A DNA stretch of 37,610 nt from Natrinema pallidum DSM 3751 (GTDB lineage: Archaea; Halobacteriota; Halobacteria; Halobacteriales; Natrialbaceae): positions 1-37,610 of the forward strand of contig NZ_AOII01000004.1 of assembly GCF_000337615.1 (NCBI RefSeq), read 5' to 3'. Below, piece by piece: positions 5,022 through 37,555 of this stretch (position 1 is its first letter; the number at the start of each line of letters is the position of its first letter). The notes below the pieces were generated by a model. That model worked only from the letters and a program-made list of their open reading frames with translations, was not told where the DNA came from and did no database searches. The translations under genes were made by a program, and so were the position numbers.

Positions 5022-5043
5022 ACTGTTGCATAATAGCTGATTG

Positions 5044-5052
5044 ATATATAAG
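5044..5052 (-). promoter_or_regulatory. TATA box upstream of the regulator stump
   Basis: The minus strand reads TTATATATC about 23-31 bases before ATG 5021, consistent with leaderless transcription of the 4944-5021 stump and the 4470-4928 pseudogene. Confidence 0.45.
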
Positions 5053-5346
5053 TGACTTCGCTATCTTGCAACAGCCGACTGGCCCAGTCAAGTCAGCGCA
5101 CAGTATTAACGTCGATCCGAGAATCTCCACAGTGCTCTCGAGAGGATTCCGGTGACAGCTGGCGTCTTCAGGGACACCCACAGGAGAGTCGTTCGGGTAA
5201 GACCGACAACGACCGATCAAATGACGTACTACAGACTAACGGTACACTGCATACAACCGCTCTTGTGCTGGATATTAGGTGGGCGGATAGAGTGAAACCC
5301 TTCTCAGGGGTTGTGGGTAGTCGGGAGACACCCGCAACTGTCGACG
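5053..5346. other. Non-coding stretch with a 9-bp inverted repeat at its right end
   Basis: I see no convincing gene in either direction here. At 5324-5332 and 5350-5358 there is a perfect inverted repeat (GGAGACACC / GGTGTCTCC, 17-base loop). It overlaps the final codons of the coiled-coil gene ending at 5347 and could act as an mRNA 3' structure for that gene. Confidence 0.4.
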
Positions 5347-17906: not shown

Positions 17907-18000
17907 ACGGGTTGCTGAGATGGGAATGGACCTGACCCTAGTACCGCGATTGAACGGTCCATGCAAATGCATTTCAAATACTGGTGACCAGAGTGACGGT

Positions 18001-19044
18001 ATGCAGCGCGCGTTCCGCGTTGGCGAGGCCTATCGGGACACGGGAAGCTTCAGGAGCTCGGAGGACCAGTTTCTGCGGTGGATCCGCGGTCCACTGAGTA
18101 GCGGAATCAAAAACACAGGTGGAATCCGCGACCTCGGTGCGAATCACTCGGAGATACCCGCGGCGCTAATCCTCGTCTCCAACGATGCGGGCGTCTCACA
18201 GCACGACGACCCGTGGGAGGACACGCTTGCGGTCAACGCTGGCTACGTGAGCTACTGGGGAGATGCGAAGAAGGATCTCCGGTATGACGAGTCGGCACAG
18301 AACCGGAAAATCAAGGATGCGTTCGACAGGATGGCCTCGGGACGACGTGAGGAGGTACCCCCCGTACTGGTGTTCCGGAAGCCTGAGAGCGGCGTCGTCG
18401 AGTTCTGTGGGCTTTGCGTCCCGGATCACTTTGAGGTGCGCACCTATCAGGACGATTCGGGAGAACAGATACCGAACTACCGCTTTCACTTCTCGATTCT
18501 CAACACACAAGCCGTTCCAGTCTCGTGGCTCCACAAGCGTGCGCAGACGAGCGACGACGACCAGGCGCCCGAAGTCTGGAAGCAGTGGGTCAGGGAAGGA
18601 GAGGTCGCCCAGTGGCCGACTGGCGAACTCCTCGATACGAAAGGAGAGGTTCGGCGCTACGAAACGACCAAGACGATGGTGAGTAAAGCGTTTCGGGAAG
18701 AGACGTTCAAACGGTACGGGCATGCCTGCGCGATGACCGGTATCCGTGAGGAGTCGCTACTGGACTTGGCGCACATACTGCCACAGAGCCAGCACCCCGA
18801 CCTCGCAGAGCATGCGGAGAACGTGCTCGTTCTGAACTCGCTCCATCACCGAGCGTTCGACGCCGCGCTGTTCACGGTCGACAGTGAGTATCGGATTCGG
18901 ACAAGTCCATCTTTCGAGCCTGCACATCCGTTTCTGCGGGAGACGATCACCGAGAAAGAGGGCAATCCGATTGCGTTCCCACCGGGCGTTCAGGTGCGGC
19001 CGGGATTCCTCGAGGAGCTGAATGCCGGCCTGTCGTGGTTGTAG
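18001..19044 (+). CDS. HNH endonuclease, ScoMcrA-like modification-dependent type
   Basis: From ATG 18001 (MQRAFRVGEAYRDTGSF) the protein has 347 residues. In-frame ATGs at 17920 and 17926 would add ~25 residues of less typical composition. Residues ~1-180 resemble the N-terminal recognition domains of ScoMcrA-type enzymes: an xRVGEAYR start, a block around AALILVSNDAGVS, a 'W-D-Y-G-D' stretch, then PPVLVFRKPESG. The C-terminal part carries the HNH nuclease: CAMTGIREESLLDLAHILP, then NVLVLNSLHHRAFDAALFTVD. ScoMcrA-like enzymes cut DNA bearing modifications such as 5-methylcytosine or phosphorothioate. The gene faces drmMI convergently and is divergent from the drmD operon. The nuclease call is firm; dependence on a modification is inferred. 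Confidence 0.8.
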   Translation: MQRAFRVGEAYRDTGSFRSSEDQFLRWIRGPLSSGIKNTGGIRDLGANHSEIPAALILVSNDAGVSQHDDPWEDTLAVNAGYVSYWGDAKKDLRYDESAQNRKIKDAFDRMASGRREEVPPVLVFRKPESGVVEFCGLCVPDHFEVRTYQDDSGEQIPNYRFHFSILNTQAVPVSWLHKRAQTSDDDQAPEVWKQWVREGEVAQWPTGELLDTKGEVRRYETTKTMVSKAFREETFKRYGHACAMTGIREESLLDLAHILPQSQHPDLAEHAENVLVLNSLHHRAFDAALFTVDSEYRIRTSPSFEPAHPFLRETITEKEGNPIAFPPGVQVRPGFLEELNAGLSWL

Positions 19045-22000: not shown

Positions 22001-23226
22001 CCGTCAGAGGCCTCGTGGCGAGTGAGTAATTCAATGACTTCCGCGAGATAAGCGTCGCCGGCCTTGTAGTTTGAGAGGAACTGTGACTCGACACTATCGT
22101 CGTTGTCTGGACTCGTTCGGAACAAACCACCATTGTACGCGGGGATGTAGAGATCCTTTTTCGGAATGCCCTGTCCTTGGCTACCCTCGTCGATCAGGAC
22201 GAAGAGCTCCTCGAGCCGGTCCCAGAGATTCGTTTGCCAGGTCTGATAGTGTTGCTGGGTCGCGTCACGGTTCTCGACGACCGTCTGTTTCAGTTCGTTC
22301 AGACTGTAGCTCCCGCTGTAGATCTCGTTATCCGTAGGGAGCAGGTTCCGTCCCTCGCTTTCGGCGTAGAGGACAAAGATGAGCCGGTAGAGGTAGATGA
22401 GTGAACTATCGTGGATCAGATCTAGGTCATCTTCATCGAGGTCATCATTCGTGTCGAGGAATCCCTCTGCGAGTACGCGAATCGCCTCGTAGATGTTCTC
22501 TTGGAGGTCCTCACCAAGTTCCTCAGCGAAGACGCTCGACTCGTCATACACGTCGTCGAGGAAGCAGTCGCCGGTCTGGTCAGGGAGGAACGCTTCCTGA
22601 CGGAAGAACAAGTAGAACTCCTTGAACGCTTCAAAGTCACCCTCGCTGTCGGCGACATCGAGGAGTTCTGGCAGATCGATCTCGTAGTAGGAGTCCAGTC
22701 GGTGACTCGTCGGCCCGTAGTAGAGCCGCCACTTCTTGCCGTTCGTGAGGACCGCCCACTGGGTTGGTGTTTCCTGGAGATAGCGGTGGATCTGATAACT
22801 CGGGTTCTCGAAGTCACGTTTCTCTTCCCCACGTGTGTCGAGCTTTCGGCCCCATCGCTTTGCGTCGGCGACGGCGATCGACTCCTCGTAGAAATTCTCA
22901 CGGTCGAACGCAGCGTCGACCGCTTCCTCGCTCGGGAAGAAACCGTAGTCGGGCCGTCGAGCGTTTCGCATGACTGTCTCCTCAATCTCGAACGGGATAC
23001 CGAGGATGTCGAAAATTGGCCGAATAAAGTTCTTCTCTAACTGTGCCTCATTGTAGTCGTCGACGCGCTCCTGTTTCTCGGCCCAGAGGTCGTTGATCTC
23101 CTCGAAAGCCATTTCCACATCGTCGTCTGGAACGTCGTTCCAAGGCTCTGTCTCTCGGAGATGGTCTTCGAGATAGTGGTTCGAAAACAGGTCGCGGTTT
23201 GTCCGGTATGTGCTGGAGTCCGTCAT
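19063..23226 (-). CDS. drmMI: DISARM N6-adenine methyltransferase DrmMI with nuclease domain
   Basis: This 1387-residue protein begins at ATG 23226. Residues ~60-170 form an HsdR_N-like PD-(D/E)XK domain: RPDYGFF (Asp93), VADAK (Asp121, Lys123), the Q-x3-Y motif QIHRY (Gln145), and WAVLTNGKKWRLYY (157-170). The gamma-type N6-adenine methyltransferase core has motif I LDPAMGSGHF (537-546) and the catalytic NPPW (803-806). A target-recognition and helical C-terminus follows. The layout is close to Type IIG/Eco57I-like enzymes, to which DrmMI is related. It should protect host adenines. Whether the nuclease part cuts is not known. It lies 161 bases after drmC with its own AT-rich upstream region, so a separate promoter is possible. 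Confidence 0.88.
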   Translation of the reverse strand: MTDSSTYRTNRDLFSNHYLEDHLRETEPWNDVPDDDVEMAFEEINDLWAEKQERVDDYNEAQLEKNFIRPIFDILGIPFEIEETVMRNARRPDYGFFPSEEAVDAAFDRENFYEESIAVADAKRWGRKLDTRGEEKRDFENPSYQIHRYLQETPTQWAVLTNGKKWRLYYGPTSHRLDSYYEIDLPELLDVADSEGDFEAFKEFYLFFRQEAFLPDQTGDCFLDDVYDESSVFAEELGEDLQENIYEAIRVLAEGFLDTNDDLDEDDLDLIHDSSLIYLYRLIFVLYAESEGRNLLPTDNEIYSGSYSLNELKQTVVENRDATQQHYQTWQTNLWDRLEELFVLIDEGSQGQGIPKKDLYIPAYNGGLFRTSPDNDDSVESQFLSNYKAGDAYLAEVIELLTRHEASDGEGKVFVDYSSLDERNLGSIYEGLLEYKLDVADEPLTVDDGEYTPAGDDDDITVEVGEVYLRTDDGERKATGSYYTPEYVVEYIVDETLGPLVDEIRSDLMSQSADTTHSREGGFADEFAERIFALTVLDPAMGSGHFPVNAVDYLAREIIDAQEEQDRQAIDAEDAEIRPPTTEEGELRDINWARRKVAQRCIYGVDVNPLATELAKVSLWLRTLAAEQPLAFLDHHLKTGNSLVGSDIEDVLTNGDDDATGDGQLTLQQSFDHTRQRAMEHVTDRFQDLLNIDNETLEDAKEMEAVYDDVRADPLYKKLLAMANVHTANAFGLDVPGDADERMARALHSDAWEKIEQQDWFKSAQAMAEDDHFFHWELEFPMAFYDQDGERKADAGFDAVIGNPPWVNVGRMKGKPAEADYYNEQFKTAEYQVDLYTLFLERGMDMLSKGSPIGFIVPDPWLANYRTPKIREFLLIENQPRKIIHSPQSAFPEVGAEHLIYIGERSDGFEDPFLRGEMDDDAQVEINDEFSSSLLREEDGYVVYTHSTVAPILNQIESRSRNLGSLYETVRGVGPYHHSQQDQEIIDDRAYHADKKEDDTYVPELKGKHLSRYSIQWEGDTWISYGPWLAEPREKRFFEGKRLLLREILGERFQVDVISEEFVVDRGIYIALQGDQEIDLLYALALLGSKASVFWFREKYSENDELFPKLRVAHFEKLPIRDVQFDLPETERNSTVESLFSEYQSLLDGEMDREKMLSAIFEYTSDDTEIVHDLLVRVAEEQKSHLDDRNSINLELLDYLGTYEEGLNLPDIGIFQPSSPEYLDATSEDYENLRVGDVRTVLEGDTVIVEATARYKPENEDEYETDQWGYRETDYETVFSVTNLSDEEATLVEAFVPVAVDKAGGFAGFRETATKTNSLVDRLKAMTLPDTDDIGDDLRRYVVNRERADELDAKIEKTDQLIDEIVYDLYDLTDEEIEIVEEAVADD

Positions 23227-23387: not shown

Positions 23388-24317
23388 TCAGATATCGACA
23401 CGGATCGCGCTCGCGGAGTCAAGAAGGCACGTACAGAGCTCTCGGAAGGGAGTGACCTTCGCACCCTCGAGAAGCACGCCAAGCTCGAGGTACCGATTGA
23501 ACCCATAATCGGTGACGTTAGCGCTCCCGATATACGCAGCTCGGGAGTCAAACAACATCACCTTCGCGTGGAGGGTAAACTGCGGGTTCTCCCCATCTTG
23601 TGTTCGCTCCTCCATCGGGGTGCTGTCATCCCAAACTGTGTAGTCGACGAGTGAGACGCGTGAAGCGACCCCCTGCTCCGCAACGCGGTCCATGAACGAC
23701 TGAATGACATGGTAATTGTGCGACTCTGTATCCGACAGATAGCGCGTGACGATCGTCAGGTCGACCCCCCGTTCGAGTGCATCAAGGAGCACGTCGGCCA
23801 GACGACCGAAGCCTTCCCCCTCGAAAAACGGGGAGAGTAGGATAATCTCGCTGTCACAGCGTTTGATCTGGCTGGCCAGCGTCGAGAGCAGTCCATCCAT
23901 CCCGAACGAGGCGGCAGTCGTGCCACTGAATGCGGGATCGTCAGGGAATGTTATCAGTGGCGTTACTGTTGTCGTCGGGACTCGCTCCTGATGGGCCGCC
24001 AGTATGCGAATTGACTCCTGGGCACGCTCGAGAACTTGGCGGGTTCGCGTGGCGTCGACGGTAAAGCGGGTTTCCACCAGATCGGTTTCGTAGGACTCTC
24101 GCTGGACAACATCACACTGCAGAAACTGGCGGAAGAGGTCGGTTGCAGCCTCCCGACTCAGTCTCGTATCGCGCGCGACAGCAGCAGGAGAAAGACGCTC
24201 GCCTCGGCCCGCAGCGACGAGGAGGAGGCCTTCCAGTTCATCCAGAAGTGTCTCATCGTGCTCCGCAATATCGGCGATCGCAAGCGTCCGATCAATGGCT
24301 AGATGTTGGCTGGACAT
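23388..24317 (-). CDS. drmC: DISARM phospholipase D-family protein DrmC
   Basis: This 309-residue protein has an N-terminal winged-helix-like region (residues ~20-80). A PLD domain follows, with a strand-turn near LLSPFFEGEGFGRLADVL and a single complete HKD motif, LHAKVMLFD followed by GSANVT. PLD-family nucleases with one HKD act as dimers. In the DISARM system of Bacillus, DrmC was reported as dispensable or weakly needed for protection. The start ATG 24317 is 24 bases beyond the drmB stop, so the gene is in the drmA-drmB-drmC transcription unit. Family and role are well supported. Confidence 0.88.
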   Translation of the reverse strand: MSSQHLAIDRTLAIADIAEHDETLLDELEGLLLVAAGRGERLSPAAVARDTRLSREAATDLFRQFLQCDVVQRESYETDLVETRFTVDATRTRQVLERAQESIRILAAHQERVPTTTVTPLITFPDDPAFSGTTAASFGMDGLLSTLASQIKRCDSEIILLSPFFEGEGFGRLADVLLDALERGVDLTIVTRYLSDTESHNYHVIQSFMDRVAEQGVASRVSLVDYTVWDDSTPMEERTQDGENPQFTLHAKVMLFDSRAAYIGSANVTDYGFNRYLELGVLLEGAKVTPFRELCTCLLDSASAIRVDI

Positions 24318-24341: not shown

Positions 24342-26303
24342 CTACAGTCGCCAGAAACCCTCGATAGATCGGTCCGTGTTGGGTCGGCTCCCGAACAGAT
24401 AGTCCCGACAGAGGACCTGGTTGAAGTACGAACAGCTGATCTCGCTCACGTGGAGACAGGACAGACAGGCTCCGTCACGCTGTGAACAGACCGGGTCCAT
24501 CATGCACTCATTCCCGTGGGCTTTCGCCTGGCCCAGGAGATCGTCCAGTTGCTGTTCGACCATGGTGGTCATCCCGCCGATGTTGAACTCCTCCCGGTTA
24601 TTGGTATAGATCACCAGTGACAGCGCGCGCGGGAAGAGGAACTCGCTCAGATTCGTCCGGTCGAACCCGCTGATGGTGCTCGCTTGCTTCAGTAGGATGT
24701 GTGAGAGCGTGTGCAGCATCTCGAAGACGTACTTTGTCACCTGGCCCTCAACGGTGTCATCAGTAGTGGTCTCGAACCGACCGTACTGGTCGACGGGGTC
24801 GAGATGATTCAGCAGGAACGCCCACTGCTCGGCCTCCGAGAGCTCTTCGATAGCTGCTCGTGCTCGATCGATGTCGGCCTGCTCCGGGTTCTCTGGGAGT
24901 GTGGGAAGCGTGATGCTCCCTCGAACTGCGTCTTCGTCACTGGTACCAGGGATGTTGACGGCCAGCCAGAGTAACACCGCGGCTGGGTCGAGGTCGAACT
25001 GTGTCGCCTCGGTTTCTGAGGTGTCGACGAAGATCGGGGTCCCGTCGCCGCTGCTTGCGTTCTGGGAGAAGGCGTTCAGCCGAGCTTCATCCTCCTCACG
25101 GCTACCACGCGTGTACCCGTAGACGAACGTCTGAACAGGGAAATCCTCAATAACGCGAACGTCCCTGAACCCGAGACGCTCGATGTTGTTGGTGTAGGTC
25201 GAGATCTTGTCGGCCTTCTGTGGGAACCCCTCATTGCGGGCGTCGGCCTCCAGCTCGTCGATTGTGTGGGCGGTGAGTTCCTCGAGACTGAGCACGTACT
25301 GGAGGAGTTCGTCACCGGCGTTAGTCATCTCCTCGGCATTCTCGCCTGCGTCCAGGTCGATCAAATCTGTGATGACTTCACCGACGGTCTGGCTGTCGAT
25401 TTCGCCATGCTCACGGAGCCACTCTTCAGCCTCGGCCAGCGATTCGACCTCGGATTCGTTCTGGTAGACCTCGATCTTCCGGTCGTCATCTATTTCGGCA
25501 CCCTCGATCCCCTCATTCATGTCGACGGCCTGCAGCGGAGAATCAGAGAGTCCGAGGTGCTTGGCGAGTGCCTTACGTGAGCCGTCCTCGCTTCCGCGGA
25601 GGTGCCCAATCCCCGAGGTGTGCAGGTTCACAGTCGTCAGGTAGTGTGGGTAGTACGTCGAGCCCGCACGATGGACGGTGGTGTACATCTTGTCCTCGTC
25701 CGGGTCGTCTTCGTACGCCGGTGGGACATAGTCGCAGCCGCAGTTCTGGTAGTAGCTTACCCGAGTGTCCCACCCACAGATGTTACAGCGCCATTTGAAG
25801 TTCTGCGCGCGCTGACTGTCCTGAGTGTCAAGGACGATGTGCTGATCGCCGTGCTCGGGGCACTTTTGGGGGTACAGCCGCCTGATTTCCCCGCAGCTGT
25901 GGACGCTGGCGAACTGGTACTGCTTCAGATCACCGTTGCAGCCCGATCGCTGGCACTTCAGCGCTTGGTTTTTTCCGTTGAGATCATCCGCAGAGTAATA
26001 CCCATGGGCCTTCTGACAGCTCGTGCAGTAGAACGTCGTCGGGAAGGGGCGGGCACGCACCTCTTCGGGGGCGGCAAAGTCATAGTGCGACGGGTTGTTC
26101 GAGGTGAATCCCTGTTCATCGCCGTCCCAGTTCTTCGCCCTGGCGAACACGCGGTCGACGATGTAGTCCCGGTCCACTTGGCCGCTTGCGTCAGTAGTTT
26201 CGAGGCGGTTCACCTGCCAGATGCCGCGCTTGTCGCTGTAGTCGAACGTGTTCCCGGGAAGGAACTGATACAGGATCTGATGGCGGCTACGTTCCATACT
26301 CAT
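24342..26303 (-). CDS. drmB: DISARM protein DrmB (DUF1998)
   Basis: This 653-residue protein begins MSMERSRHQILYQF, 6 bases after the drmA stop. Residues ~92-205 hold several Cys pairs (FYCTSCQKAHG, ALKCQRSGCNGD, FKWRCNICGWD), consistent with zinc binding. The C-terminal DUF1998 region ends in a Cys cluster (CMMDPVCSQRDGACLSCLHV, then SCSYFNQVLCRDYLFG). DUF1998 proteins pair with MrfA/DrmA-like helicases. In DISARM, DrmA and DrmB form a DNA-binding complex. Direct adjacency and order drmA-drmB-drmC match known DISARM loci. Confidence 0.92.
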   Translation of the reverse strand: MSMERSRHQILYQFLPGNTFDYSDKRGIWQVNRLETTDASGQVDRDYIVDRVFARAKNWDGDEQGFTSNNPSHYDFAAPEEVRARPFPTTFYCTSCQKAHGYYSADDLNGKNQALKCQRSGCNGDLKQYQFASVHSCGEIRRLYPQKCPEHGDQHIVLDTQDSQRAQNFKWRCNICGWDTRVSYYQNCGCDYVPPAYEDDPDEDKMYTTVHRAGSTYYPHYLTTVNLHTSGIGHLRGSEDGSRKALAKHLGLSDSPLQAVDMNEGIEGAEIDDDRKIEVYQNESEVESLAEAEEWLREHGEIDSQTVGEVITDLIDLDAGENAEEMTNAGDELLQYVLSLEELTAHTIDELEADARNEGFPQKADKISTYTNNIERLGFRDVRVIEDFPVQTFVYGYTRGSREEDEARLNAFSQNASSGDGTPIFVDTSETEATQFDLDPAAVLLWLAVNIPGTSDEDAVRGSITLPTLPENPEQADIDRARAAIEELSEAEQWAFLLNHLDPVDQYGRFETTTDDTVEGQVTKYVFEMLHTLSHILLKQASTISGFDRTNLSEFLFPRALSLVIYTNNREEFNIGGMTTMVEQQLDDLLGQAKAHGNECMMDPVCSQRDGACLSCLHVSEISCSYFNQVLCRDYLFGSRPNTDRSIEGFWRL

Positions 26304-26309
26304 CGTTGA

Positions 26310-29300
26310 TCACCGGTTGTCCATGGTCTCGAAGATTTCTCGGTAGCGGTACTCAGACCGGATTGGGAGTTGCTCGTCGACGTCCCGAAGGCTGCGCATC
26401 GGCGAGCGCTTGATGCGGCCGCTCGTCCACTGGTCATCGTCGAGGCGGAGCTGCGAGAGAGCCTCTTTGGTAAGATCCTCGATATCGCCCCGGAACTCCT
26501 CGTGGTCGTCAGGGTCACCGAACATCCCCAGCATCTGCTGGCGGAGTTCGCCCTCGTCGACGGAGTCAGCGAACCCCTCGGCGTTATCACCGAAGTAGAG
26601 GTTCCCGCTGCCGTCACGGTACATATAGTGGTTGAGCAGCAGCCCCATGAACAGACCCGGATGGGTCTGTTTGACGCTGTTTTTCGCCCAGCGGTTGATC
26701 GGGACGGGCTCGACCAGCCGATCGAGGAAGGCGTGGTACTTCTCGAAGAAGTGGTAGTGACTCAGGTCACGCTCCCGGATGGGGTGTGCAACGTTAAACA
26801 CGAGGCCAGGGCGCGACCGACCTGCACGGGAACTTGCCTGGATGTATTCAGCAGTCCCGCGAGGCATCCCGAAGAACGTCATCATATTGAACCGGTCAAC
26901 GTCAACCCCATGGGCGATCATGTTCGTCGCCGTAATCGTATTGAGTCGACTCGCCAGCAGCCAGGCGAGTGCCTCGCGCGTATTTTCACTCGCACGGGCG
27001 CGCTCGACGTCGAACTGATCGCTGTCAATGACCTCGTTCTCCTCGTCGAGGCTAGCCTCGAGCGTGCTCCGAAGCGAGAGGACGGAGTCTGTCACGTCCT
27101 CCTCGACCACCCCTCGATCAATCAGGTGGTTGAGGATCTGTTCGTCGGCTTCCTCGTCCCAGGGGTTCTCCACGACGTCCAAGACCTCCATGATGGTCTC
27201 GAACCCGGTCCCACCGGTCATCCGCTCGGAGGCCAGCGGCGGTCGGCCGTCTTCTTGGAGATAGGTGTCGAGCTGGGAGACGATGGACTGATCCAGTCGG
27301 TCTCCGTCTTTCTTCGAAAGCAGATAGGTGATGCTGGTGCTGTAGTAGCTGAGCAGGGCCAGCACCTCGTCGATCGAGTCGGCCTCGAGCGGCGCTGTTG
27401 TGTCCGTCCCCTCGAGTGCAGCACCTGTCAGCACCTGAGTCGGGTCGTTCAGTGACCTGCGGAACAGGTTCTGTATCTCCCGGTGGTAGTAGAACAGGAG
27501 ATCGATGATGGAGTTGATGTGGGTTTTCCCGTGGGGTACCAGTCCGATGTAGTAGCGTTGGGTCTCTGCGCGCTCCTGTGCGTAGAAGTTCTCGCGCAGG
27601 TACGGGCCCGGAGAGGGGAAGCGCTCGGCTGGCCGCATGAACAGGTTATGCACCTGATCTTCGAATCCGGTGATGGTCGCTGTCGGCGCAATCACCTTCG
27701 TCTTCCCGGCCTCGACGAGCTCCTGTAGCTCAGCAACCCCGGTCTCGTAATGGCCGTCGAAGCTCCCCATGCTCTCTTCCAGCAAGTGGAGTTCGTCGGG
27801 GACCATTAGCGACGGCGCAGGGTCGTAGGGTTCGACCGGACGCGCCATGTCGGAGAAATCGTCCTGGTCGATCGGACAGCCGTACTTCTCGGTGCACTCA
27901 CCGAGGCTTGCGAACCCATGAATGGGGCACTCGAGCGTCATTTCGCCCGTAATGAGGTGAGCGAACTTCCGCTGATACCCGATGGCCGTGATCTTGTCGA
28001 TCGTACCTGCGAGAATGGTCGGCGCGTACCGGTAGAGCTCGTTGTCGACGACGTGGACCGGGAGTTCCTCCTCGGCGTACGTCTCACTGGTGTCTAGTGA
28101 GCGCGACTGCCACGGGCAGTCGAAGCTGCTCCCCGTACAACAGTGAGTCAGCCGATGGTCGTCCTCGGTGACCTGGACCTCAACATCCGCGCCGCAGGCC
28201 GGACAGCTGGGAACGACTTTCGCCTCACGCCGGAGACTCTCTCCAGATGGGCCCTGATACCGCTGATGGTTGTTGTTGTCGTACCCGGTGAGAGCGTTCG
28301 GCGTGTTCGCCTTGCCGACGAGATAGCCCATCGAGAACGGGCGGGAGGGGTAAGAGCCGATATCTGACTGTTCGCGGCGAACAAGGTCGGCGTACATCAC
28401 CGTCTCCGTCATCCGCTGGAACTGCTGGAGCGAGAGAAGCCGGAGCGGGAACTTCGTCCATGTGGTCACGCCGAAGTTCTTCCCACGGAGCCGGTCGAAA
28501 AACATACTCCAGACGGCGACCCCGAGGAACGCTTCGGTTTTCCCACCGCCCGTCGGGAACCAGAGCACGTCAACGACATCGAGGGGCGAATCGGCGTCCT
28601 CCGCGCGGTCCTCGGTCGACCCATCGCGCCAGTCGACCTCCGCCCACTCCTCGTACTCACGGCTAGCAACGTCGGGCACCTCCATGACGATGAACACCAA
28701 CTGGAAGAGGCGCCAGCCGGGGAACTCGTGCATCCGGTCCATCGCCTCATTCATCAGTTCGAACGCGCGGCCGACTGTTTCAGGGTGCTGACGGAGGCAC
28801 TCGATCCCTCGTTCGAAGCGCTCGATCTCGCGCTCGAACGCGTCACGGTCATCGTTGAAGTCGGCGAGATCGCCCGTCTCGGGGTCGTCGTCCCAGTCTT
28901 CACGCTCACGATACTGTTCGAGAGCGGCGTCGTACTCATCGCGGAGGTACTGCCGCATCTCGGCGGCGATTTCGTTGAGGGTATCCAGGCCGCCGTTTTC
29001 TAGGTCAGCGAGCACCTCGAACGCCGTGTTGGCGTCGCGATCTGCGGATTCGTAGACGAGCTGGCGGTACTCCGGGATGAACTGCGTCTCCAGGCGATTC
29101 GCCGTCGGTGCTGCATCAGGTGCGCGGCGGCCAGGCGGGATGCCGTCCTCGTCCACCTTCTGGTCGTCGCGTTCAGGGGCAGTAACTGTGCAGTTACGCC
29201 CGTGGCCCCAGAGGTCGCGGTTGTACCGGAAGTCCTCGGGGAGTGGGTCGAAGGTGAAGGGGACGAACTCGAGATCGCCTCTCGTCTCCAGTTTGAGCCC

Positions 29301-30125
29301 TACCTCGAACAGGGTCGGGTCCCGGATGGTGTAGATAGCGTCGTCGCGCGACTGGACTGCCTCGTTCGCAATTTCGAAGTCGACGATGGTACTGTCATCA
29401 CCGTTCTCCTCGTCAGCCATTACCTCGACGGTCAGGCTAGCGTGCCAGTCGGGGAGAGCAGGAGACCCCTCAGCAGCGCGTTCAGCGAGGTAGCCACGGA
29501 AGCTTACCTCGTCTTCTAGCGCGGCCGGCGGGACGGTGTCGTCATCGTCTGTCTCAGCGTAGAGGTCGTAGTTCTCCCGAGCATACTCACGGGCGTCAGC
29601 AAATGCCGTCTGGAACGCTTCCCGAGCACGCTCTTGGATGACATCCGGAGTAGTCCGCCTTGGCGTTTGGAGCACGGCTGACGGGATCTTGATCGGGGGC
29701 ACATCGAGCTCGATCCGTTCGAAAACCGGGAGCAAGCTGTCGCCCTCGTCGTCTTCGTCGCGGTCCCCCAGTGCGACGAAGGAGTCCCGGTTCACCATCT
29801 CGTCGTACGTGGGGTTAACGCGAACCCACACGCTCGCGTTGACCGAAAGGGTCAGCTCGTCGCCTTCGGTGCCGCCTCGTACGCGAACGGTGGCGCCGAG
29901 GCCGGTCGGCTGCATCTTCGACTGCAGGTCGTCGTCCGGATCGTCTAGCTGATCCTCGCTTTCAGGCGCCAGCGCGCCCGCGAAGAATCGATCGCTGGGG
30001 AAGTCCCGCTGGACACGCTCGTCGATGTCGCCACGAGCCTGTTTCAGCACCGTCTCGCGGAGGTGCCGGGCGATGCGTTCGTCATCAGCCGGGGGTTCAG
30101 TCCCGGCACTGCTTCCTATAGACAT
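26310..30125 (-). CDS. drmA: DISARM helicase DrmA
   Basis: I start at ATG 30125 (MSIGSSAGTEPPADDE), 5 bases after the upstream stop; a longer frame reads back into that gene but is a shadow. The 1271-residue protein has ~500 N-terminal residues unique to the family. It then has Walker A PTGGGKTEAF (residues 524-533), the DELH box (LMVPDELHLLEE), a zinc-like insert (CPACGADVEV, THCCTGSSFDC), TATITG (motif III), and a second domain with GVDVDRFNMM and QASSRAGRS (motif VI). This is the DrmA/MrfA-type SF2 helicase fold. DrmA binds unmethylated DNA ends and, with DrmB, carries out the core DISARM action. Confidence 0.93.
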   Translation of the reverse strand: MSIGSSAGTEPPADDERIARHLRETVLKQARGDIDERVQRDFPSDRFFAGALAPESEDQLDDPDDDLQSKMQPTGLGATVRVRGGTEGDELTLSVNASVWVRVNPTYDEMVNRDSFVALGDRDEDDEGDSLLPVFERIELDVPPIKIPSAVLQTPRRTTPDVIQERAREAFQTAFADAREYARENYDLYAETDDDDTVPPAALEDEVSFRGYLAERAAEGSPALPDWHASLTVEVMADEENGDDSTIVDFEIANEAVQSRDDAIYTIRDPTLFEVGLKLETRGDLEFVPFTFDPLPEDFRYNRDLWGHGRNCTVTAPERDDQKVDEDGIPPGRRAPDAAPTANRLETQFIPEYRQLVYESADRDANTAFEVLADLENGGLDTLNEIAAEMRQYLRDEYDAALEQYREREDWDDDPETGDLADFNDDRDAFEREIERFERGIECLRQHPETVGRAFELMNEAMDRMHEFPGWRLFQLVFIVMEVPDVASREYEEWAEVDWRDGSTEDRAEDADSPLDVVDVLWFPTGGGKTEAFLGVAVWSMFFDRLRGKNFGVTTWTKFPLRLLSLQQFQRMTETVMYADLVRREQSDIGSYPSRPFSMGYLVGKANTPNALTGYDNNNHQRYQGPSGESLRREAKVVPSCPACGADVEVQVTEDDHRLTHCCTGSSFDCPWQSRSLDTSETYAEEELPVHVVDNELYRYAPTILAGTIDKITAIGYQRKFAHLITGEMTLECPIHGFASLGECTEKYGCPIDQDDFSDMARPVEPYDPAPSLMVPDELHLLEESMGSFDGHYETGVAELQELVEAGKTKVIAPTATITGFEDQVHNLFMRPAERFPSPGPYLRENFYAQERAETQRYYIGLVPHGKTHINSIIDLLFYYHREIQNLFRRSLNDPTQVLTGAALEGTDTTAPLEADSIDEVLALLSYYSTSITYLLSKKDGDRLDQSIVSQLDTYLQEDGRPPLASERMTGGTGFETIMEVLDVVENPWDEEADEQILNHLIDRGVVEEDVTDSVLSLRSTLEASLDEENEVIDSDQFDVERARASENTREALAWLLASRLNTITATNMIAHGVDVDRFNMMTFFGMPRGTAEYIQASSRAGRSRPGLVFNVAHPIRERDLSHYHFFEKYHAFLDRLVEPVPINRWAKNSVKQTHPGLFMGLLLNHYMYRDGSGNLYFGDNAEGFADSVDEGELRQQMLGMFGDPDDHEEFRGDIEDLTKEALSQLRLDDDQWTSGRIKRSPMRSLRDVDEQLPIRSEYRYREIFETMDNR

Positions 30126-30130: not shown

Positions 30131-31786
30131 TCACTCTGTAATCCGGTCGAGCTGGTCGTCTGAGATGATGGTAGGCATGATTGTGGGAGCGAGGGCGTTG
30201 ATGCTCCGGGATACAACCTCGGCTGTTATAAGGTCCGTGTCCTTGAGACTCGTGCCGTACTCGCCGACGTAGTCGCGGTACATGGTGATGGTGTAGAACA
30301 CCATCGCGAGTTCGTAGTGCTGCTCGACGAACTCTTTCCACGTGTCCTTGACGTTGCGCTCGACGATGAACGACCGGAGTGCGGCAGCGTCCATGTTGAT
30401 CGTGAGTGAGAGGCCACTGATGGTGCCATCCTGACTTGGGTCGAGGTGTATCAGCGTGTGTTCGTCGAAGTTCCTCGCATCGTCTGCGTTGAACTCCTCT
30501 GGGTTAATTGGCTCACCATCGTCGTTGGTTCGCCAGTTCTTTTCGTGAACGTACGCGATGTCGGGCATCTCGAAGCCCCAGTCGTCGGTGACACCGTCGT
30601 TGCCTGCCGTCCCTTCGCGGTCGCTCGCGCTGGCGCCGTCGTCACCGGACGTGTCGGTGGTGTCTCCCTCGCCGTCGCCGTCGCCGTCGCTCTCGCTCTC
30701 GGAAGGGGAGTGCGAATTGTCTGTCGCCTCGACGTACTCGAGTTGGCAGCGTGCGGTGAGTGAGGCAGTATCGACGTTCACGCCGCCGTCGGTGGCGACG
30801 TCGGCCTCCACACGTTCCGGATAGGCGTCCGCCGGGTCGTCGACCGATGAGCAGTCGCGCGGGTCCGGCCGGGTCAGCTCGACCGACAGGGCTGTCTCCT
30901 TTCCAGGATCGGCGTCTTCGGGCGGGTCCACGGTCAGCGTGAGCAGACCGTCCTGAAGCTCGATCGCGCGGAGCTGCTCGGGACACGAAACCTCGAGCGT
31001 GCCCGAGAGGACGTCCCGGGCGAGGTAGTCGTTCTGAGCGTCCGTGGCGAACCGGACTGTCGCCGATCCGTTGACGGGGGTCTCAACGGGCATGGGCTCG
31101 TCGGCCTCCCAGAGGACGTGCTCCTCGCTCCCGGGGTTATACTCCTCGATGGGGACGAGGAAGGTCGGGAGCTTCGGCGCGTGCGGCGCGTCGCCTCCGT
31201 TTTCGTCACCACCCGAGGTGTCAGTGTGGTCGGAAAGGTTGTCGTCGGCGGACTCAGGCGCGGACTCGTTCCCACCGTCACTCGGACGGATGCGGGGTGC
31301 GCGGATCCGTTCGCCGGTGGCCATGAAGTTCCCGACCTCCGGGTTCCGCTCGATGAACTCGGCGAACGTATCGGTGTCGGTCGCCGGTTCGGCGTTTCCA
31401 CGCTGGGCCCGTCGGCGTTCCTCTTCATCGGTGAGCAGGTCACTTCCTTCGAGGGCGTCTTCGAGGGCGTTGAGGAACTTGTTGGCCTGCGGAGAGTCCT
31501 TCAGCGTATCCCGCGACGGGCTGAACATGTTCACCATTCCGAGGTTCGCGAGATCGTCGAACTCGGCGATAACGACGGTGTCTGAGGCGACCTTCGAGTA
31601 CCCCAGCGACTTCAGGAAGTACTCACCCTTGCTCCCGTGGGTCTGGCCGTTGATGGTGAGCATCACGGCGTGGTCCTTCTGGACCCCTGTACGTCCAGTA
31701 GCGTCTTTGTGCGTCGAAGTACCGGACACGAACTTACTCTTCTCGTCGGCGGCGTCACCGAGGTCGTCGTCTTTGAACAGCAGCAC
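30131..31786 (-). CDS. C-terminal part of split GHKL ATPase gene
   Basis: The GTG at 31786 gives 551 residues, but coding character continues upstream in this frame to about 31909 (for example GFLQELEDGNEHLLEGREHL). The part therefore joins the preceding frame at a homopolymer. Residues ~40-90 (AVMLTINGQTHGSKGEYFLK, then VVIAEFDDLANLGMVNMFSP) resemble the transducer region that follows a GHKL ATPase domain. After an acidic linker comes an Ig-like beta domain (SGTLEVSCPEQLRAIEL). A second acidic linker and a helical C-terminus end 5 bases before drmA. If expressed alone it would lack the ATP site. Its role in DISARM is inferred from operon position only. Confidence 0.7.
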   Translation of the reverse strand: MLLFKDDDLGDAADEKSKFVSGTSTHKDATGRTGVQKDHAVMLTINGQTHGSKGEYFLKSLGYSKVASDTVVIAEFDDLANLGMVNMFSPSRDTLKDSPQANKFLNALEDALEGSDLLTDEEERRRAQRGNAEPATDTDTFAEFIERNPEVGNFMATGERIRAPRIRPSDGGNESAPESADDNLSDHTDTSGGDENGGDAPHAPKLPTFLVPIEEYNPGSEEHVLWEADEPMPVETPVNGSATVRFATDAQNDYLARDVLSGTLEVSCPEQLRAIELQDGLLTLTVDPPEDADPGKETALSVELTRPDPRDCSSVDDPADAYPERVEADVATDGGVNVDTASLTARCQLEYVEATDNSHSPSESESDGDGDGEGDTTDTSGDDGASASDREGTAGNDGVTDDWGFEMPDIAYVHEKNWRTNDDGEPINPEEFNADDARNFDEHTLIHLDPSQDGTISGLSLTINMDAAALRSFIVERNVKDTWKEFVEQHYELAMVFYTITMYRDYVGEYGTSLKDTDLITAEVVSRSINALAPTIMPTIISDDQLDRITE

Positions 31787-31859
31787 GGTGATGTCTCGCT
31801 CGCCCAGCGTTTCCGAGTCGGTATCGACGGTGAGATGCTCTCTTCCTTCGAGGAGGTGC

Positions 31860-32879
31860 TCATTCCCGTCCTCCAGTTCTTGCAGGAACCCTCGCGTGGA
31901 ACTTTGGGGGAACTTCGAGTGAGTTATACCGGAGGTCGGTCAGCTGGATGGGGTACGGTGAGTCGACGACTGACCGCTCGAACTTGTGCCGGAACCCTTC
32001 ATCGCCGCTTATCATCGTTCGCGATGCGTTCGTCTGGTAGTCGTACACCTTGACGAAGGCGCCGTGGCTCTGCGGATCGGGCGTTGTCGTGTTCTTCTCG
32101 AAGTCGTACTTCTCAGGGTAGTTCTCGCGGAATTTATCCGTGAGCGCCCCACCGAACGTCCCGTCGAAGATGGGGAACCCGCCGTTCACCGTAAGATACT
32201 CCACCTGACTCTTGCGAGGCTTGTCGTGTATTAACGTCCACGACCACTCGCCCGGCTCATGAACGGACGCACTTGCGATGAACTTGAACGCCCGCTCGTT
32301 ATACTCCTCTTCGATGTTTCCGGCGAACTGCATTACGGCGGTGCTCCCCATACCGTACTGCCCCTGCAGGAAGGCGTACTTCTGCTTCTTCAGTCCGGGT
32401 GCGTGCAGCCCGACGAAGTCGTCGAACTCCGAGCGGGCTTTCCCCTTGCCGTTGTCGCGGACCGTGAGGTTGAGCAAATTCCCCTCCTGCGGTGCGTAGC
32501 CGTCGGCGATTATCTCGAGTTCGGCGACGTCGAGGTCAACCCAGTCCGACTGTGCGGCTTCCTTCATCGAGGAAGCGCTCGGGTCGTCGCCGACCGCGCG
32601 GGCCTCCTCGTAGAAGCGAAGGGTGAGTGAGTCCTCCGCGTTCAGCGGCAGTTCCGAGAACGCCGCCATCGGAGAACTCGCCTGCGTGTAGACGTCGGAG
32701 TAGTTGTTCTCGTCGTTACCGAGGGGTACCCAGTTGATTTCGTACGCTTCCCCCAACTCAGAGAGGGCTTCCTCCAGTTCGTCGATGACCGCTCGGACCT
32801 CGTCAGGGCTATCTGCGGTGAGTAGCCGTTCGGCGTACGCCTTGGAGGTAGATCCTGAGAGCCGCACGGGCTCGGTCAT
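31860..32879 (-). CDS. N-terminal GHKL ATPase part, split by frameshift
   Basis: From ATG 32879 (MTEPVRLSGSTSKAYAERL) this frame gives 339 residues ending in an unrelated tail (VPPKFHARVPARTGGRE). A GHKL (gyrase/Hsp90/histidine kinase/MutL) ATPase is indicated by LTVRDNGKGK (the DxGxGK box, residues ~140-149) and FLQGQYGMGSTAVMQFAG (the GxGxGS-like lid), with an upstream Glu-rich helix. Loss of one C from the five-C run at 31910-31906 fuses it to the next frame, giving 915 residues. GHKL ATPases act as ATP-driven DNA clamps (MORC, MutL, GyrB). It heads the minus-strand unit leading into drmA. The ATPase call is good; a DISARM role is inference. Confidence 0.75.
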   Translation of the reverse strand: MTEPVRLSGSTSKAYAERLLTADSPDEVRAVIDELEEALSELGEAYEINWVPLGNDENNYSDVYTQASSPMAAFSELPLNAEDSLTLRFYEEARAVGDDPSASSMKEAAQSDWVDLDVAELEIIADGYAPQEGNLLNLTVRDNGKGKARSEFDDFVGLHAPGLKKQKYAFLQGQYGMGSTAVMQFAGNIEEEYNERAFKFIASASVHEPGEWSWTLIHDKPRKSQVEYLTVNGGFPIFDGTFGGALTDKFRENYPEKYDFEKNTTTPDPQSHGAFVKVYDYQTNASRTMISGDEGFRHKFERSVVDSPYPIQLTDLRYNSLEVPPKFHARVPARTGGRE

Positions 32880-33094: not shown

Positions 33095-33517
33095 ACGTGC
33101 GTGCAGCATCGGGGTGAAGTCACAACCATGAGGAAAACGGATACTACCACAACTGGGGTGCGCGTGCGTACAGCGAAGAACGCGTCGAGAAGTGTGAGGT
33201 TGAACAATCTGGATGGGGCTTCATCGGTTGGAACAAGCGAACCGAGGAATCGGTAAACGATAGCATCTTGCTCATCAACGTGCCCCCATGGCTCTTCGGG
33301 AGTGACCAAGGTCCGTCCGAGGGCATCAGGGGCTCGGTCATCGGGTTCGAGGTTATATACTGGCCCCTTCAGTTATCTGGTCAAAATAGGCGGAAAACCT
33401 GTTCGTAAAGACAATCACTCCCACAAAGGTAGTGGCTGAACGGTCGTGGGAGGTGTCTGGAATAAGCAGTATCTGATTATCCTGGAGTTTATCCCTGGTG
33501 ACGAAATAACACTTGGT

Positions 33518-35758
33518 ATGACTGAATCGGTCACGTGCTGCGATTCGCCGATGGCGCTAGTGCGATCAGCGCCACCCACGGAGCGTGACGCCCATCGACA
33601 GTTACTCTTCGACAATATCGAATTCCTCATTGACACGCTGACGGCAGCCCATATGCGCAAACAGCGAATGATCCCGGTCGGCTGTCCCGGGTCGACGCCG
33701 GAGCGCTTGGCGCGGCAGCGCGGTAAAAATGGTGACGACTGCCGATACGCGATGCTGGACTCTGCTCACGGTGAAACGGCCGACACGCTCTGCCCCTGCA
33801 ATGACCCACTCTGCGGGAGCGATGATCCGCTGGATGCCGTAGCTGCGGTGGTCCTAGGACCTCCCGTCACTGCTCCAGCGGAACGCTTCTTCCAGCGACA
33901 ATCCAGACGAACCGTCAGGGAACTCCGGGAGCAACACGGAGACTGGGAAACACTCGCTTCAATGGACCACGATGAGCTGTCAGAGGTTCTCCAAGAAGCC
34001 TGCTCACTGAAGGGAATAAGCAAGGATCGGGTTTCTCGCCTCGAACAGCTTCTCGTGGCCGTTCAAGAGACCGACTATACGGACGGGGTGACGCTCCGCG
34101 ACTTCTCGAGGGTGCAGTACCAGAACTATGTAGACTTCCTCGCGAGTGTCCCCGGAATTGAACAAGATGACGGGTGGTGGCTCCTACAGACGGCCTTCGA
34201 TAAGCCTGTCTGGCCGGCTGACCCGTGCGTTGATGAGTTTCTGTGTGCACTCGGGTTACTCGATCCAGAGGAGCTGCATACGGCGGAGAGTCGTCGCCAC
34301 GCGCTCGAAGAGGAGTTGACCGACCGTTTGATCGCTCCGCTCTATCGGGCACTTGCCACACACGCAGTCACTGCAGGAACAGATGTTTGTGGCGAAGACT
34401 GCGAAATCCGGAAGTTCATGCTCACACACCGCCTGCGACAGCAACAGATAGAGCGGAATGGGCCAACCGCTGTCGACCTCTTCGCGGGGGCCGGTGGCCT
34501 TTCGTGTGGATTACGGCAGGCGGATTACGATATCAGGTGGGCGATCGATATTGATACGGACGCCGTGGCGACGTATCGCCTGAACCATCCCGAAATCCCA
34601 CACCGAAACGTCGTCTGTGGGGATGTCCGCGAGGTGGATCTCACGACGCGTATCCAAGAGGCTGTAAACGAGCCCGACCTGCTGGTCGGTGGCCCACCGT
34701 GTCAGTCGCTCTCCAATGCAGGGTACCGGTCGCGTCGAGGAGACGACGAGGACTACAGCATTCTCGATGACGACCGGACGACCCTCTACACGCAGTACGT
34801 GAAAGCTGTCGAGGAACTCCGGCCAAAGGCCATCGTGATGGAGAACGTCGAGGGGATGGTCAACGAGGTAGGAGATACTGACATTCGGGTCATTGACTGG
34901 GTGATAGAGGACCTCGAAATGCTTAGTGAAACAGGCCCGGGGTATGATGTCGAGTACAAGCTACAGGACATGACTGAACTCGGCATCCCACAAAAACGAG
35001 AACGGGTGCTTCTGATTGGGATCCGCGACGACCTCACAGAGAGTGCAACAGCAGATGATATGCTGAATGAACTCTCGATAGAAGGCAAAACACAGAGTAT
35101 CCAGCAGGGACTCTCCGGACTCCCCCGTCTTCGGCGAGGGGAGGGTGGAAGACTACTCCCGAGGACGGGACGTGGCTTTAGGAGCGACTACGTGCGTACT
35201 CATGATCTCGATTCTGGAACCAGCCTCTGTTTCAACCATCAGGCTCGAGATCACCCGATGGAGAAAGATCAGATTCTATTTGATAAGGCTCTGAGTCCTG
35301 GCGATACCGGATGGGACGTGAAGTATAATTCTGACGGAGAATATGCAGAATATGTCGAATATGACGTCGGGACTGCCGAAAATAAGCGGTTCGGAGATAA
35401 GTACCGTATGCTTGAATGGTCAGAGCCCTCCCCGACAATCGTGGCTCATCTAGCTAAAGATGCGAATAGCTACGTGCTGCCAGATTACTACAAGCATGCA
35501 CGTCCAAGCCCCGACCGCGCGGATCCAAAGCGAAATCGTGGTATTACCCCTCGCGAGGCGGCACGGTTACAGTCCTTCCCGGATGACTACATCTTCTTGG
35601 GACCCTTTACGAGCTGGTTCAAACAGATCGGGAACGCGGTACCACCGATTGCAGGGAAACGCATTGGTGAAGTGCTCGACTCTCTCGTTGAAGCTGGAGA
35701 GTTCCCTGCAGCCAGTACAGATGCATCAAACTCTGGTAAAGCGGTTTCTGACGACTGA
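33518..35758 (+). CDS. HhH-GPD domain fused to C5-cytosine DNA methyltransferase
   Basis: I start at ATG 33518 (MTESVTCCDSPMAL); a GTG at 33446 would add 24 residues. The protein has 746 residues. Residues ~110-320 read like endonuclease III. There is a helical start (DDPLDAVAAVVLGPPVTAP), a helix ahead of the hairpin (EACSLKGISKDRVSRLEQLL), the helix-hairpin-helix (DFLASVPGIEQDDGWWLLQTAF), and the Asp-containing turn (PVWPADPCVDEFLCALG). The catalytic Lys of Nth (PGVGRK) is replaced by Asp, and the FeS cysteines are lost, so a bifunctional lyase is unlikely. From residue ~320 all C5-methyltransferase motifs are present: DLFAGAGGLS, GGPPCQSLS, ENVEGM, QKRERVLL, TPREAARLQSF, IGNAVPP. It is divergent from the GHKL-drmABC unit. 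Confidence 0.82.
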   Translation: MTESVTCCDSPMALVRSAPPTERDAHRQLLFDNIEFLIDTLTAAHMRKQRMIPVGCPGSTPERLARQRGKNGDDCRYAMLDSAHGETADTLCPCNDPLCGSDDPLDAVAAVVLGPPVTAPAERFFQRQSRRTVRELREQHGDWETLASMDHDELSEVLQEACSLKGISKDRVSRLEQLLVAVQETDYTDGVTLRDFSRVQYQNYVDFLASVPGIEQDDGWWLLQTAFDKPVWPADPCVDEFLCALGLLDPEELHTAESRRHALEEELTDRLIAPLYRALATHAVTAGTDVCGEDCEIRKFMLTHRLRQQQIERNGPTAVDLFAGAGGLSCGLRQADYDIRWAIDIDTDAVATYRLNHPEIPHRNVVCGDVREVDLTTRIQEAVNEPDLLVGGPPCQSLSNAGYRSRRGDDEDYSILDDDRTTLYTQYVKAVEELRPKAIVMENVEGMVNEVGDTDIRVIDWVIEDLEMLSETGPGYDVEYKLQDMTELGIPQKRERVLLIGIRDDLTESATADDMLNELSIEGKTQSIQQGLSGLPRLRRGEGGRLLPRTGRGFRSDYVRTHDLDSGTSLCFNHQARDHPMEKDQILFDKALSPGDTGWDVKYNSDGEYAEYVEYDVGTAENKRFGDKYRMLEWSEPSPTIVAHLAKDANSYVLPDYYKHARPSPDRADPKRNRGITPREAARLQSFPDDYIFLGPFTSWFKQIGNAVPPIAGKRIGEVLDSLVEAGEFPAASTDASNSGKAVSDD

Positions 35759-37111: not shown

Positions 37112-37555
37112 ATGGACAGCACTGACTCCGGCCAAGATATTCCACTGCCATTCGGTCGCACATCAACCACAGTTGATGAACTCCATACACTGATTAAGAT
37201 CGATAAAGCGGCAGCACTGCTTGAAGAGAACGGAGTCACCTCCGCTGAAAAGAGAATTGAGGAATTTCTTGAAGCTGTCCCATCTCTTCTGGCATGGCTC
37301 AGGAACGAGGGCCGAAACTTCCCCTGGCGAAATACAACCGATCCCTGGCGGGTGTACGTTTCTGAAATACTTCTTCAGCGAACACGAGCAGACGCAGTCA
37401 GCGAAGTCTACGATGATTTTTTCGATCGATTCCCTGAACCAGCAGCTATCCGTAAAGCTTCGGAGGAAGAGATCAGAGATTCCGTCTCGTCGCTCGGATT
37501 TGTAAATCACCGAACGCGTCATCCGTCTTTAGTTAGGCGCAAAACCGCACGATAG
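37112..37555 (+). CDS. Mig-type G/T mismatch DNA glycosylase, interrupted N-terminal part
   Basis: From ATG 37112 the frame has 147 residues. Residues ~60-135 match the start of the MutY/Nth superfamily and most closely the thymine-DNA glycosylase Mig of Methanothermobacter. The line includes NEGRNFPWRNTTDPWRVYVS, EILLQRTRADAVSEVYDDFF, and EEEIRDSVSSLGFVNHRTR. In the family this is followed by 'xxLkelA' and the helix-hairpin-helix with the catalytic site. Here homology stops after HRTR (about 37518) and an unrelated tail leads to TAG. A shift of frame does not restore the family, so an insertion or rearrangement lies at about 37518, with its body beyond the window. Mig enzymes remove T from G/T pairs arising by 5-methylcytosine deamination. 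The fragment itself should be inactive. Confidence 0.68.
   Translation: MDSTDSGQDIPLPFGRTSTTVDELHTLIKIDKAAALLEENGVTSAEKRIEEFLEAVPSLLAWLRNEGRNFPWRNTTDPWRVYVSEILLQRTRADAVSEVYDDFFDRFPEPAAIRKASEEEIRDSVSSLGFVNHRTRHPSLVRRKTAR

What the first reader, a model, noticed from the sequence alone, without database searches (positions are those of the whole stretch)
30131..32879. GHKL ATPase leading directly into drmA: candidate new DISARM component
Seen: DNGKGK and GQYGMGS ATPase boxes in the N-terminal part, a transducer-like region, an Ig-like domain and acidic linkers, ending 5 bases before drmA. Known: canonical DISARM sets do not list a GHKL protein, while GHKL/MORC/MutL ATPases act as DNA clamps in other defence and repair systems. 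Inference: an ATP-driven clamp or sensor added upstream of DrmA.
Basis: partly seen in the sequence, partly recalled or inferred. Interest (0 to 1): 0.8.

Follow-up and report, generated by a model that had tools for sequence, protein, structure and literature searches.

The report
GHKL ATPase accessory of haloarchaeal DISARM
Next to a known anti-virus gene set (DISARM) in a salt-loving archaeon lies the gene of a DNA-repair-like ATPase; related archaea carry the gene whole in exactly this place, so it looks like a real added part of the defence, but in this genome the gene is broken.

Summary
On the minus strand, 32879-30131 encodes a GHKL ATPase with N-, G1- and G2-boxes, an S5-type transducer, an acidic linker and an Ig-like domain, ending 5 bp before drmA of a type I DISARM set. 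It is not a 915-residue protein here: a 4-bp tandem duplication at about 31924-31917 breaks the frame. Intact copies of 905-911 residues stand 2-5 bp before drmA in seven other haloarchaeal loci, so with the window 8 of 8 close homologues have this position. Two more loci of the same drmA clade keep only a 3' stump. The link is therefore not chance, but it is confined to one drmA clade (6 of 52 DrmA-bearing genomes among 391). More distant members of the family often sit beside DNA methyltransferases, and sometimes beside a DruE-like helicase or PbeA/C/D genes. The family is paraMORC-like: it lacks the MORC motif and matches no PADLOC model. Most likely it is an accessory ATP-gated clamp that couples modification status or DNA structure to DrmAB. 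The mechanism is inferred and untested. Verdict: a new variant of a known kind.

The parts
31860..32879 (-). GHKL ATPase gene, 5' part: open frame of 339 codons, homologous to residues 1-318 of the intact relatives (ATP-binding domain and start of the transducer)
   Evidence: 92% identity to Natrinema gari protein
32628..32657 (-). N-box (SELPLNAEDS; E76, N80, D83)
32439..32456 (-). G1 box DNGKGK
32343..32363 (-). G2 box GQYGMGS
31917..31924 (-). site of the frameshift: 4-bp tandem duplication relative to intact relatives
30131..31921 (-). GHKL ATPase gene, 3' part in the shifted frame: rest of the transducer with the NGQTHG motif, acidic linker, Ig-like domain, second acidic linker, C-terminal helices; stop 5 bp before drmA
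   Evidence: models
30728..31180 (-). Ig-like beta-sandwich (by position from the N. gari model residues 567-717)
   Evidence: weak: best Z 7.3
26310..30125 (-). drmA (SF2 helicase, 1271 aa)
   Evidence: PADLOC DrmA 2.4e-155
24342..26303 (-). drmB (DUF1998/MZB, 653 aa)
   Evidence: PADLOC DrmB 7.9e-53
23388..24317 (-). drmC (PLD nuclease, 309 aa)
   Evidence: PADLOC DrmC 1.8e-14
19063..23226 (-). drmMI-like adenine methyltransferase with TaqI-type specificity domain, 1387 aa
   Evidence: PADLOC DrmMI 7.1e-96; Pfam Eco57I, TaqI_C
14370..17312 (-). drmD / BrxHII-like SNF2 helicase, 980 aa
   Evidence: PADLOC BrxHI/HII 3.9e-169, DrmD 3.7e-113
33446..35758 (+). divergent cytosine-5 DNA methyltransferase, 770 aa, near the GHKL gene or the drm genes in the related loci
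   Evidence: Pfam PF00145 1.5e-59
12946..14322 (-). second cytosine-5 DNA methyltransferase, 458 aa
   Evidence: Pfam PF00145 1.1e-59
17920..19044 (+). AspBHI-like HNH endonuclease gene inside the DISARM cluster
   Evidence: Pfam RE_AspBHI_N 2.1e-38 and HNH_2 2e-10
37112..37555 (+). 5' half of a HhH-GPD glycosylase gene, split by an insert of about 1.8 kb whose far side lies outside the window

Best explanation
It is an accessory gene of a haloarchaeal type I DISARM variant, disrupted in this strain. The gene encodes a paraMORC-like GHKL-S5 ATPase with a C-terminal Ig-like domain. Shown: conserved ATP-site motifs, a predicted GHKL + transducer fold, fixed position 2-5 bp before drmA in one drmA clade, purifying selection on the intact copies, and repeated loss with the drm core kept. 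Inferred: like MutL, MORC and topoisomerase VI-B it closes as an ATP-dependent dimer on DNA. It would act as a clamp or sensor that gathers information on DNA modification or structure and loads, licenses or holds DrmAB there. The faster-evolving Ig-like and linker half would contact the variable partner (DrmMI or the cytosine methyltransferase). The broader family would do the same job next to other modification systems. Likelihood of the identity part is about 0.95; of the clamp/licensing step for DrmAB about 0.4.
For: Position: 8 of 8 close homologues end 2-5 bp before drmA. One drmA clade of 9 rows, 100/100 support, holds all 7 GHKL loci given to that tree plus 2 with only a stump (the G456 locus L154 was found later and is not in the tree). 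The GHKL tree puts the 6 intact DISARM copies given to it in one clade, 100/100, and its deep members L028 and L027 branch off in the same order as in the drmA tree. Selection: dN/dS 0.115-0.137 over the gene, 0.069-0.090 in the ATPase half and 0.162-0.195 in the C-terminal half in 5 pairs; drmA 0.047-0.067. Motifs, fold. Family context: PF01555 methyltransferases in 16 of 70 neighbour ORFs taken from 36 non-DISARM loci, a TSPPY methyltransferase within two genes in 15 of 36; MvaI/BcnI restriction enzymes near two of them; a DruE-like helicase directly downstream in G162; PbeA, PbeC and PbeD downstream in G093. Literature: GHKL proteins with SF2 helicases and methylases in R-M operons were described and proposed to loop DNA (PMC2292703, sections read). 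VcSduA, a GHKL-nuclease protein, defends against phage (PMC12137116, passages).
Against: No direct evidence ties the protein to DrmA physically or functionally. It is missing from other DISARM loci (of the 17 drmA loci without a GHKL gene that were fetched, 16 show no credible match and one a stump). It is broken or deleted in 3 of 10 clade loci without loss of drmA or drmB, so DISARM may not need it. Its rate of change differs from that of drmA. Family members without a recognised partner exist (three Haladaptatus loci L098, L101, L102). Pfam HATPase scores stay below the curated cut-off (20.9 against 25 in the intact protein).
Confidence: 0.5

Rival explanations
1. The GHKL protein is the partner of the adjacent cytosine-5 methyltransferase (and glycosylase), a separate small restriction-modification-like module that happens to be nested in the DISARM cluster and does not touch DrmAB.
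For: In G064 a 46%-identical GHKL gene is followed directly by two cytosine-5 methyltransferases homologous to the two of the window, with no drm gene found. Many family members outside DISARM pair with a methyltransferase. GHKL and the 33446-35758 methyltransferase diverge at similar rates.
Against: In the DISARM clade the GHKL gene is translationally close to drmA (2-5 bp) while the methyltransferase is divergent. The methyltransferase and glycosylase also occur in GHKL-less DISARM loci L070-L073, so they do not need GHKL.
Confidence: 0.2
2. It is a regulator or safety device of the cluster, an ATP-dependent remodeler that keeps DrmAB off self DNA or restrains it, rather than a sensor that helps attack.
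For: It directly precedes drmA in the same direction and could be co-expressed with it; it is lost repeatedly with the core kept.
Against: If it prevented self-attack, its loss with drmA and drmB intact should be harmful; three loci tolerate it.
Confidence: 0.2
3. The gene is a passenger: an inert or decaying hitch-hiker that one ancestor acquired upstream of drmA.
For: Frameshift here, deletion stumps in DL31 and G336; frameshifted family copies also in G230 and G148.
Against: dN/dS 0.115-0.137 among intact copies; intact in 7 loci of six genera with the ATP motifs kept.
Confidence: 0.1
4. The frameshift in the window is a sequencing or assembly error and the strain makes a normal protein.
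For: Draft assembly of 115 contigs; dN/dS of both halves against relatives still low.
Against: The change is a 4-bp tandem duplication, not a homopolymer miscount; a neighbouring glycosylase gene is split by an insert; the large drm genes nearby are all open.
Confidence: 0.15

Closest known systems
DISARM type I (DrmA, DrmB, DrmC, DrmD, DrmMI)
   Same: All five genes are matched in the window by PADLOC models.
   Different: Extra GHKL gene before drmA; two cytosine-5 methyltransferases and an AspBHI-like HNH gene in the cluster; drmD scores higher as BrxHII.
MORC / paraMORC GHKL ATPases of restriction-modification operons (Iyer et al. 2008, PMC2292703, sections 4-6 read)
   Same: GHKL + S5 ATPase next to SF2 helicases, nucleases and DNA methylases; sporadic, mobile.
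   Different: No MORC signature motif in 35 of 35 proteins; the paper's paraMORC1-5 sequences were not at hand, so the subfamily is unassigned; partner helicase is DrmA, not one of the three helicase types named for MORCs there; C-terminus is Ig-like.
VcSduA / paraMORC3-type Shedu (PMC12137116, passages)
   Same: N-terminal GHKL ATPase that works in phage defence.
   Different: VcSduA carries its own PD-(D/E)xK nuclease; no Pfam nuclease match in the C-terminal half here.
DrmE of class 2 DISARM
   Same: Occupies the slot directly before drmA in other haloarchaeal DISARM loci (L081, L083, L084).
   Different: No match to DrmE_N/DrmE_C or PADLOC DrmE.
Druantia (DruE) and Pbe systems
   Same: Distant members of the same GHKL family precede a DruE-like helicase (L031) and a PbeA-PbeC-PbeD run (L035; L143 by similar ORFs).
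   Different: The Pbe paper gives PbeB as a 66-residue protein (PMC6459918, passages); no GHKL protein was seen in the passages read there or in PMC10853773 (0 occurrences of GHKL).
Mza (MutL-like GHKL, PADLOC MzaB)
   Same: A GHKL protein in a defence system; a separate MORC-like GHKL gene in L105 matches MzaB.
   Different: The window family and its relatives match no PADLOC model at E up to 1 or 0.001.

Membership tests
DISARM type I | genes for DrmA, DrmB, DrmC, DrmD and DrmMI together, no drmE (definition as in PMC9252829, figure legend) | tested here: met
   drmD best match is BrxHII with DrmD at 3.7e-113; no DrmE hit among the window proteins scanned
DISARM type I | defence activity against viruses | not testable with these tools
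   no experiment
GHKL ATPase superfamily | four ATP-site motifs (N, G1, G2, motif IV) | tested here: met
   position 176 of the G2 box is N in 25 of 35 family members and G in 10
GHKL ATPase superfamily | curated Pfam score | tested here: not met
   HATPase_c_3 20.9 bits against cut-off 25 for the intact protein
GHKL ATPase superfamily | Bergerat + S5 transducer fold | tested here: met
   (predicted model only)
MORC | GhXhhpXXRhl motif in the S5 domain (PMC2292703) | tested here: not met
   0 of 35 proteins, regular expression
paraMORC1-5 | GHKL + S5 without the MORC motif, encoded with R-M genes | tested here: inconclusive
   features met but no reference paraMORC sequence was compared
paraMORC3 / Shedu | C-terminal PD-(D/E)xK nuclease | tested here: inconclusive
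   no Pfam match in the C part; fold search of the C-terminal model gives Ig-like matches, the last helices barely tested
DrmE | DrmE_N / DrmE_C domains | tested here: not met
MutL | sequence-level match to a MutL family model | tested here: not met
   no MutL model among Pfam or NCBIfam hits of the N part up to E 1; fold resemblance only

The most novel reading that the evidence does not exclude
One unnamed family of GHKL clamps is a portable 'modification-reading' ATPase that has been plugged separately into several DNA-modification defences: DISARM (before drmA), DruE-like helicase loci, Pbe loci and methyltransferase pairs. There it tells the helicase where unmodified or abnormal DNA lies, standing in the slot that DrmE fills in class 2 DISARM.
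Probability: 0.25. Interest if true: 0.72.

Novelty: new variant of a known kind. Interest (0 to 1): 0.52.

Why it matters
How DISARM separates self from non-self, and what its non-core genes do, is open (the 2022 structure paper asks how DrmD and DrmE change specificity; PMC9142583 discussion). A GHKL ATPase fixed before drmA in one clade, and lost in sisters that keep the core, gives a natural with/without comparison. The same ATPase family next to several modification-based defences would make a MutL/MORC-type clamp a shared element of them and link archaeal defence to the eukaryotic silencing ATPases.

Tried and rejected
Chance neighbour: rejected by 8 of 8 close homologues beside drmA.

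General DISARM component: rejected. 6 of 52 DrmA-bearing genomes of 391 have it next to drmA. Of the 46 others I fetched 17 loci: 16 show no credible GHKL match (one chance-level hit in L080, E 0.69) and one, L068, a 35-codon stump. The second stump, DL31, is a plasmid record outside the 46.

Viral carriage: a scan of viral contigs found 34 pattern matches and no relative.

PDB homologues by sequence: none (best E 0.27). PADLOC models: none.

Programmed frameshifting: considered because family copies in G230 and G148 are also frame-broken near residues 295-352; rejected as the main idea because most other copies are continuous and the window's break is a 4-bp duplication; left unexplained.

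Print search for GHKL with DISARM: searches (open-licence PubMed Central only; the founding DISARM paper is not held) listed no paper that describes such a gene; it may be described in papers not held. The YprA-family paper has 0 occurrences of GHKL or MORC.

Results against my reading: an uncultured Cenarchaeum assembly (L105) has a distant family member about 0.9 kb from a DrmB gene and 2.7 kb from a DrmA gene of another lineage, on the opposite strand with a SIS-domain gene between. So not every distant member is far from drmA, and the arrangement there is not an operon.

Full report
What is there. The genes of the finding are on the minus strand: drmA 26310-30125, drmB 24342-26303, drmC 23388-24317, a drmMI-like methyltransferase 19063-23226 and a drmD/BrxHII-like helicase 14370-17312. 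These are the five genes that PADLOC requires for type I DISARM (PMC9252829, figure legend passage). The gene of interest occupies 32879-30131 on the minus strand and its stop codon lies 5 bases before the drmA start. It is split: 339 codons from 32879, then the homology continues in another frame to 30131. Against the intact Natrinema gari gene the window carries 4 extra bases at this point, visible as ACTC ACTC. So the '915-residue protein' is not made as one chain unless the assembly is wrong.

What the protein family is. An alignment of 35 relatives keeps E76/N80/D83, D142/G144/G146, G173/G178 and G273/K277, the classical GHKL ATP site. The AlphaFold2 model of the intact orthologue has mean pLDDT 77.6 and pTM 0.66. 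Its residues from about 55 to 492 align with Hsp90 (Z 19.0, rmsd 4.6, 305 residues), MORC3 (Z 17.0, 4.1, 298), topoisomerase VI-B (Z 15.0, 5.1, 303) and MutL (Z 14.8, 4.5, 290). The C-terminal 346 residues folded alone (pLDDT 81.7, pTM 0.49) give mostly Ig- or Fn3-like matches, best Z 7.3, so 'Ig-like' is a weak but consistent label. No protein of the Protein Data Bank matches by sequence, no PADLOC model matches, and Pfam HATPase_c_3 stays below its cut-off. The MORC signature given by Iyer and colleagues is absent from 35 of 35.

Where it occurs. By profile, 18 of 391 sampled genomes of the class hold the family; by DrmA, 52 of 391 hold a drmA; six have both side by side (G000, G054, G084, G202, G290, G314). 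A second sample, of the order (392 genomes, partly the same), added G456, also beside drmA, and the plasmid collection added Halarchaeum sp. CBA1220. All eight close homologues (60% identity or more) therefore lie 2-5 bp before drmA. Of the 19 family loci in the class sample, the 13 others are not beside drmA: nine were checked over about 20 kb; G023, G088 and G148 have no drmA match and in G233 it is on another contig.

History. The drmA tree of 25 rows puts the 7 GHKL loci given to it and 2 loci with only a stump into one clade with full support. Halophilic archaeon DL31 keeps 52 codons of the 3' end (83% identity) plus upstream flank, just before drmA; G336 keeps 35 codons (51%, E 0.005, weak). 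With the window that is 3 of 10 clade loci with a broken or deleted gene while drmA and drmB remain. The close outgroup (L069-L076) has drmMI or drmD next to drmA in most and no GHKL gene; more distant loci L077, L081, L083 and L084 have DrmE-domain proteins there. The place before drmA is thus a variable slot. Intact copies are under purifying selection, dN/dS 0.115-0.137, stronger in the ATPase half than in the C-terminal half; drmA is slower still. GHKL identity between loci (0.60-0.86) is lower than that of DrmA (0.79-0.94) and near that of drmC, drmMI and the cytosine methyltransferase.

Wider family. In 36 non-DISARM loci of named genomes a TSPPY methyltransferase stands within two genes in 15, and PF01555 is found in 16 of 70 neighbour ORFs scanned. 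Two haloarchaeal loci also carry MvaI/BcnI-type enzymes. G162 has a 1764-residue DruE-like helicase right after the GHKL gene. G093 has PbeA, PbeC and PbeD after it, and G023 shows ORFs of the same order and similar starts (not scanned against models). G064 has two cytosine-5 methyltransferases after it.

Mechanism. Iyer and colleagues proposed that MORC and paraMORC ATPases of R-M operons loop DNA between recognition and cleavage sites (PMC2292703, sections read). Bravo and colleagues report that DrmAB is autoinhibited and opened by 5' overhang DNA, with methylation limiting its ATPase (PMC9142583, introduction and discussion). I infer that the GHKL protein is an ATP-gated dimeric clamp that brings a second check, or a way on to DNA without ends, to DrmAB, with the variable half adapted to the local methyltransferase. 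That is inference from fold, position and family context. A separate module with the cytosine methyltransferase, a safety device and a passenger remain open (see rivals). A GHKL protein of another kind has been shown to act in phage defence (VcSduA, PMC12137116, passages).

Judgement. A real, conserved accessory in a DISARM subclade, without a model in the libraries searched, and broken in this very genome. New variant of a known kind; interest 0.52.

Noticed in passing
L035:3883-11149 (G093) and L143:5198-12777 (G023): A divergent GHKL gene is followed by PbeA, PbeC and PbeD in L035 (PADLOC 5e-206, 5e-224, 2e-34); L143 shows ORFs of matching order. Possibly an unreported Pbe component. Presence of dnd genes not checked.
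   Followed up: partly
L031:3834-11507 (G162): A GHKL gene of the family directly upstream of a 1764-residue DruE-like helicase: a second link with a YprA-family helicase.
   Followed up: partly
L105:3569-18867 (uncultured Cenarchaeum MAG): A distant family member close to DrmA and DrmB of another DISARM lineage, opposite strand, and a MORC/MzaB-like GHKL gene at 3569-5536.
   Followed up: partly
G230 (L033:3850-6113), G148 (L142:6063-8472), window 31917-31924: Three family copies have a frame break at roughly residues 295-352. Chance, error or selection for switching the gene off is not settled.
   Followed up: partly
window 19063-23226: DrmMI is conserved between loci (about 65-97% per 50-residue block) except residues about 800-1250 (17-49%), the expected specificity region: alleles with different target sequences.
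   Followed up: partly
window 37112-37555 and on to contig C4 39386-39754: HhH-GPD glycosylase gene next to a cytosine-5 methyltransferase, split by an insert of about 1.8 kb; an unsplit homologue exists in Natronobeatus. It may be a T:G mismatch glycosylase (recalled) that protects against deamination of methylcytosine.
   Followed up: partly
window 17920-19044 (+): AspBHI-like (modified-cytosine-dependent type, recalled) HNH gene inside the DISARM cluster, also found in several of the related loci; odd beside two cytosine-5 methyltransferases.
   Followed up: no
window 10607-12064: IS66-family transposase near the downstream edge of the cluster.
   Followed up: no
L079:1875-5636 and L080:14353-18543: Proteins of 1253 and 1396 residues without clear Pfam match fill the slot before drmA in two haloarchaeal DISARM loci.
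   Followed up: no
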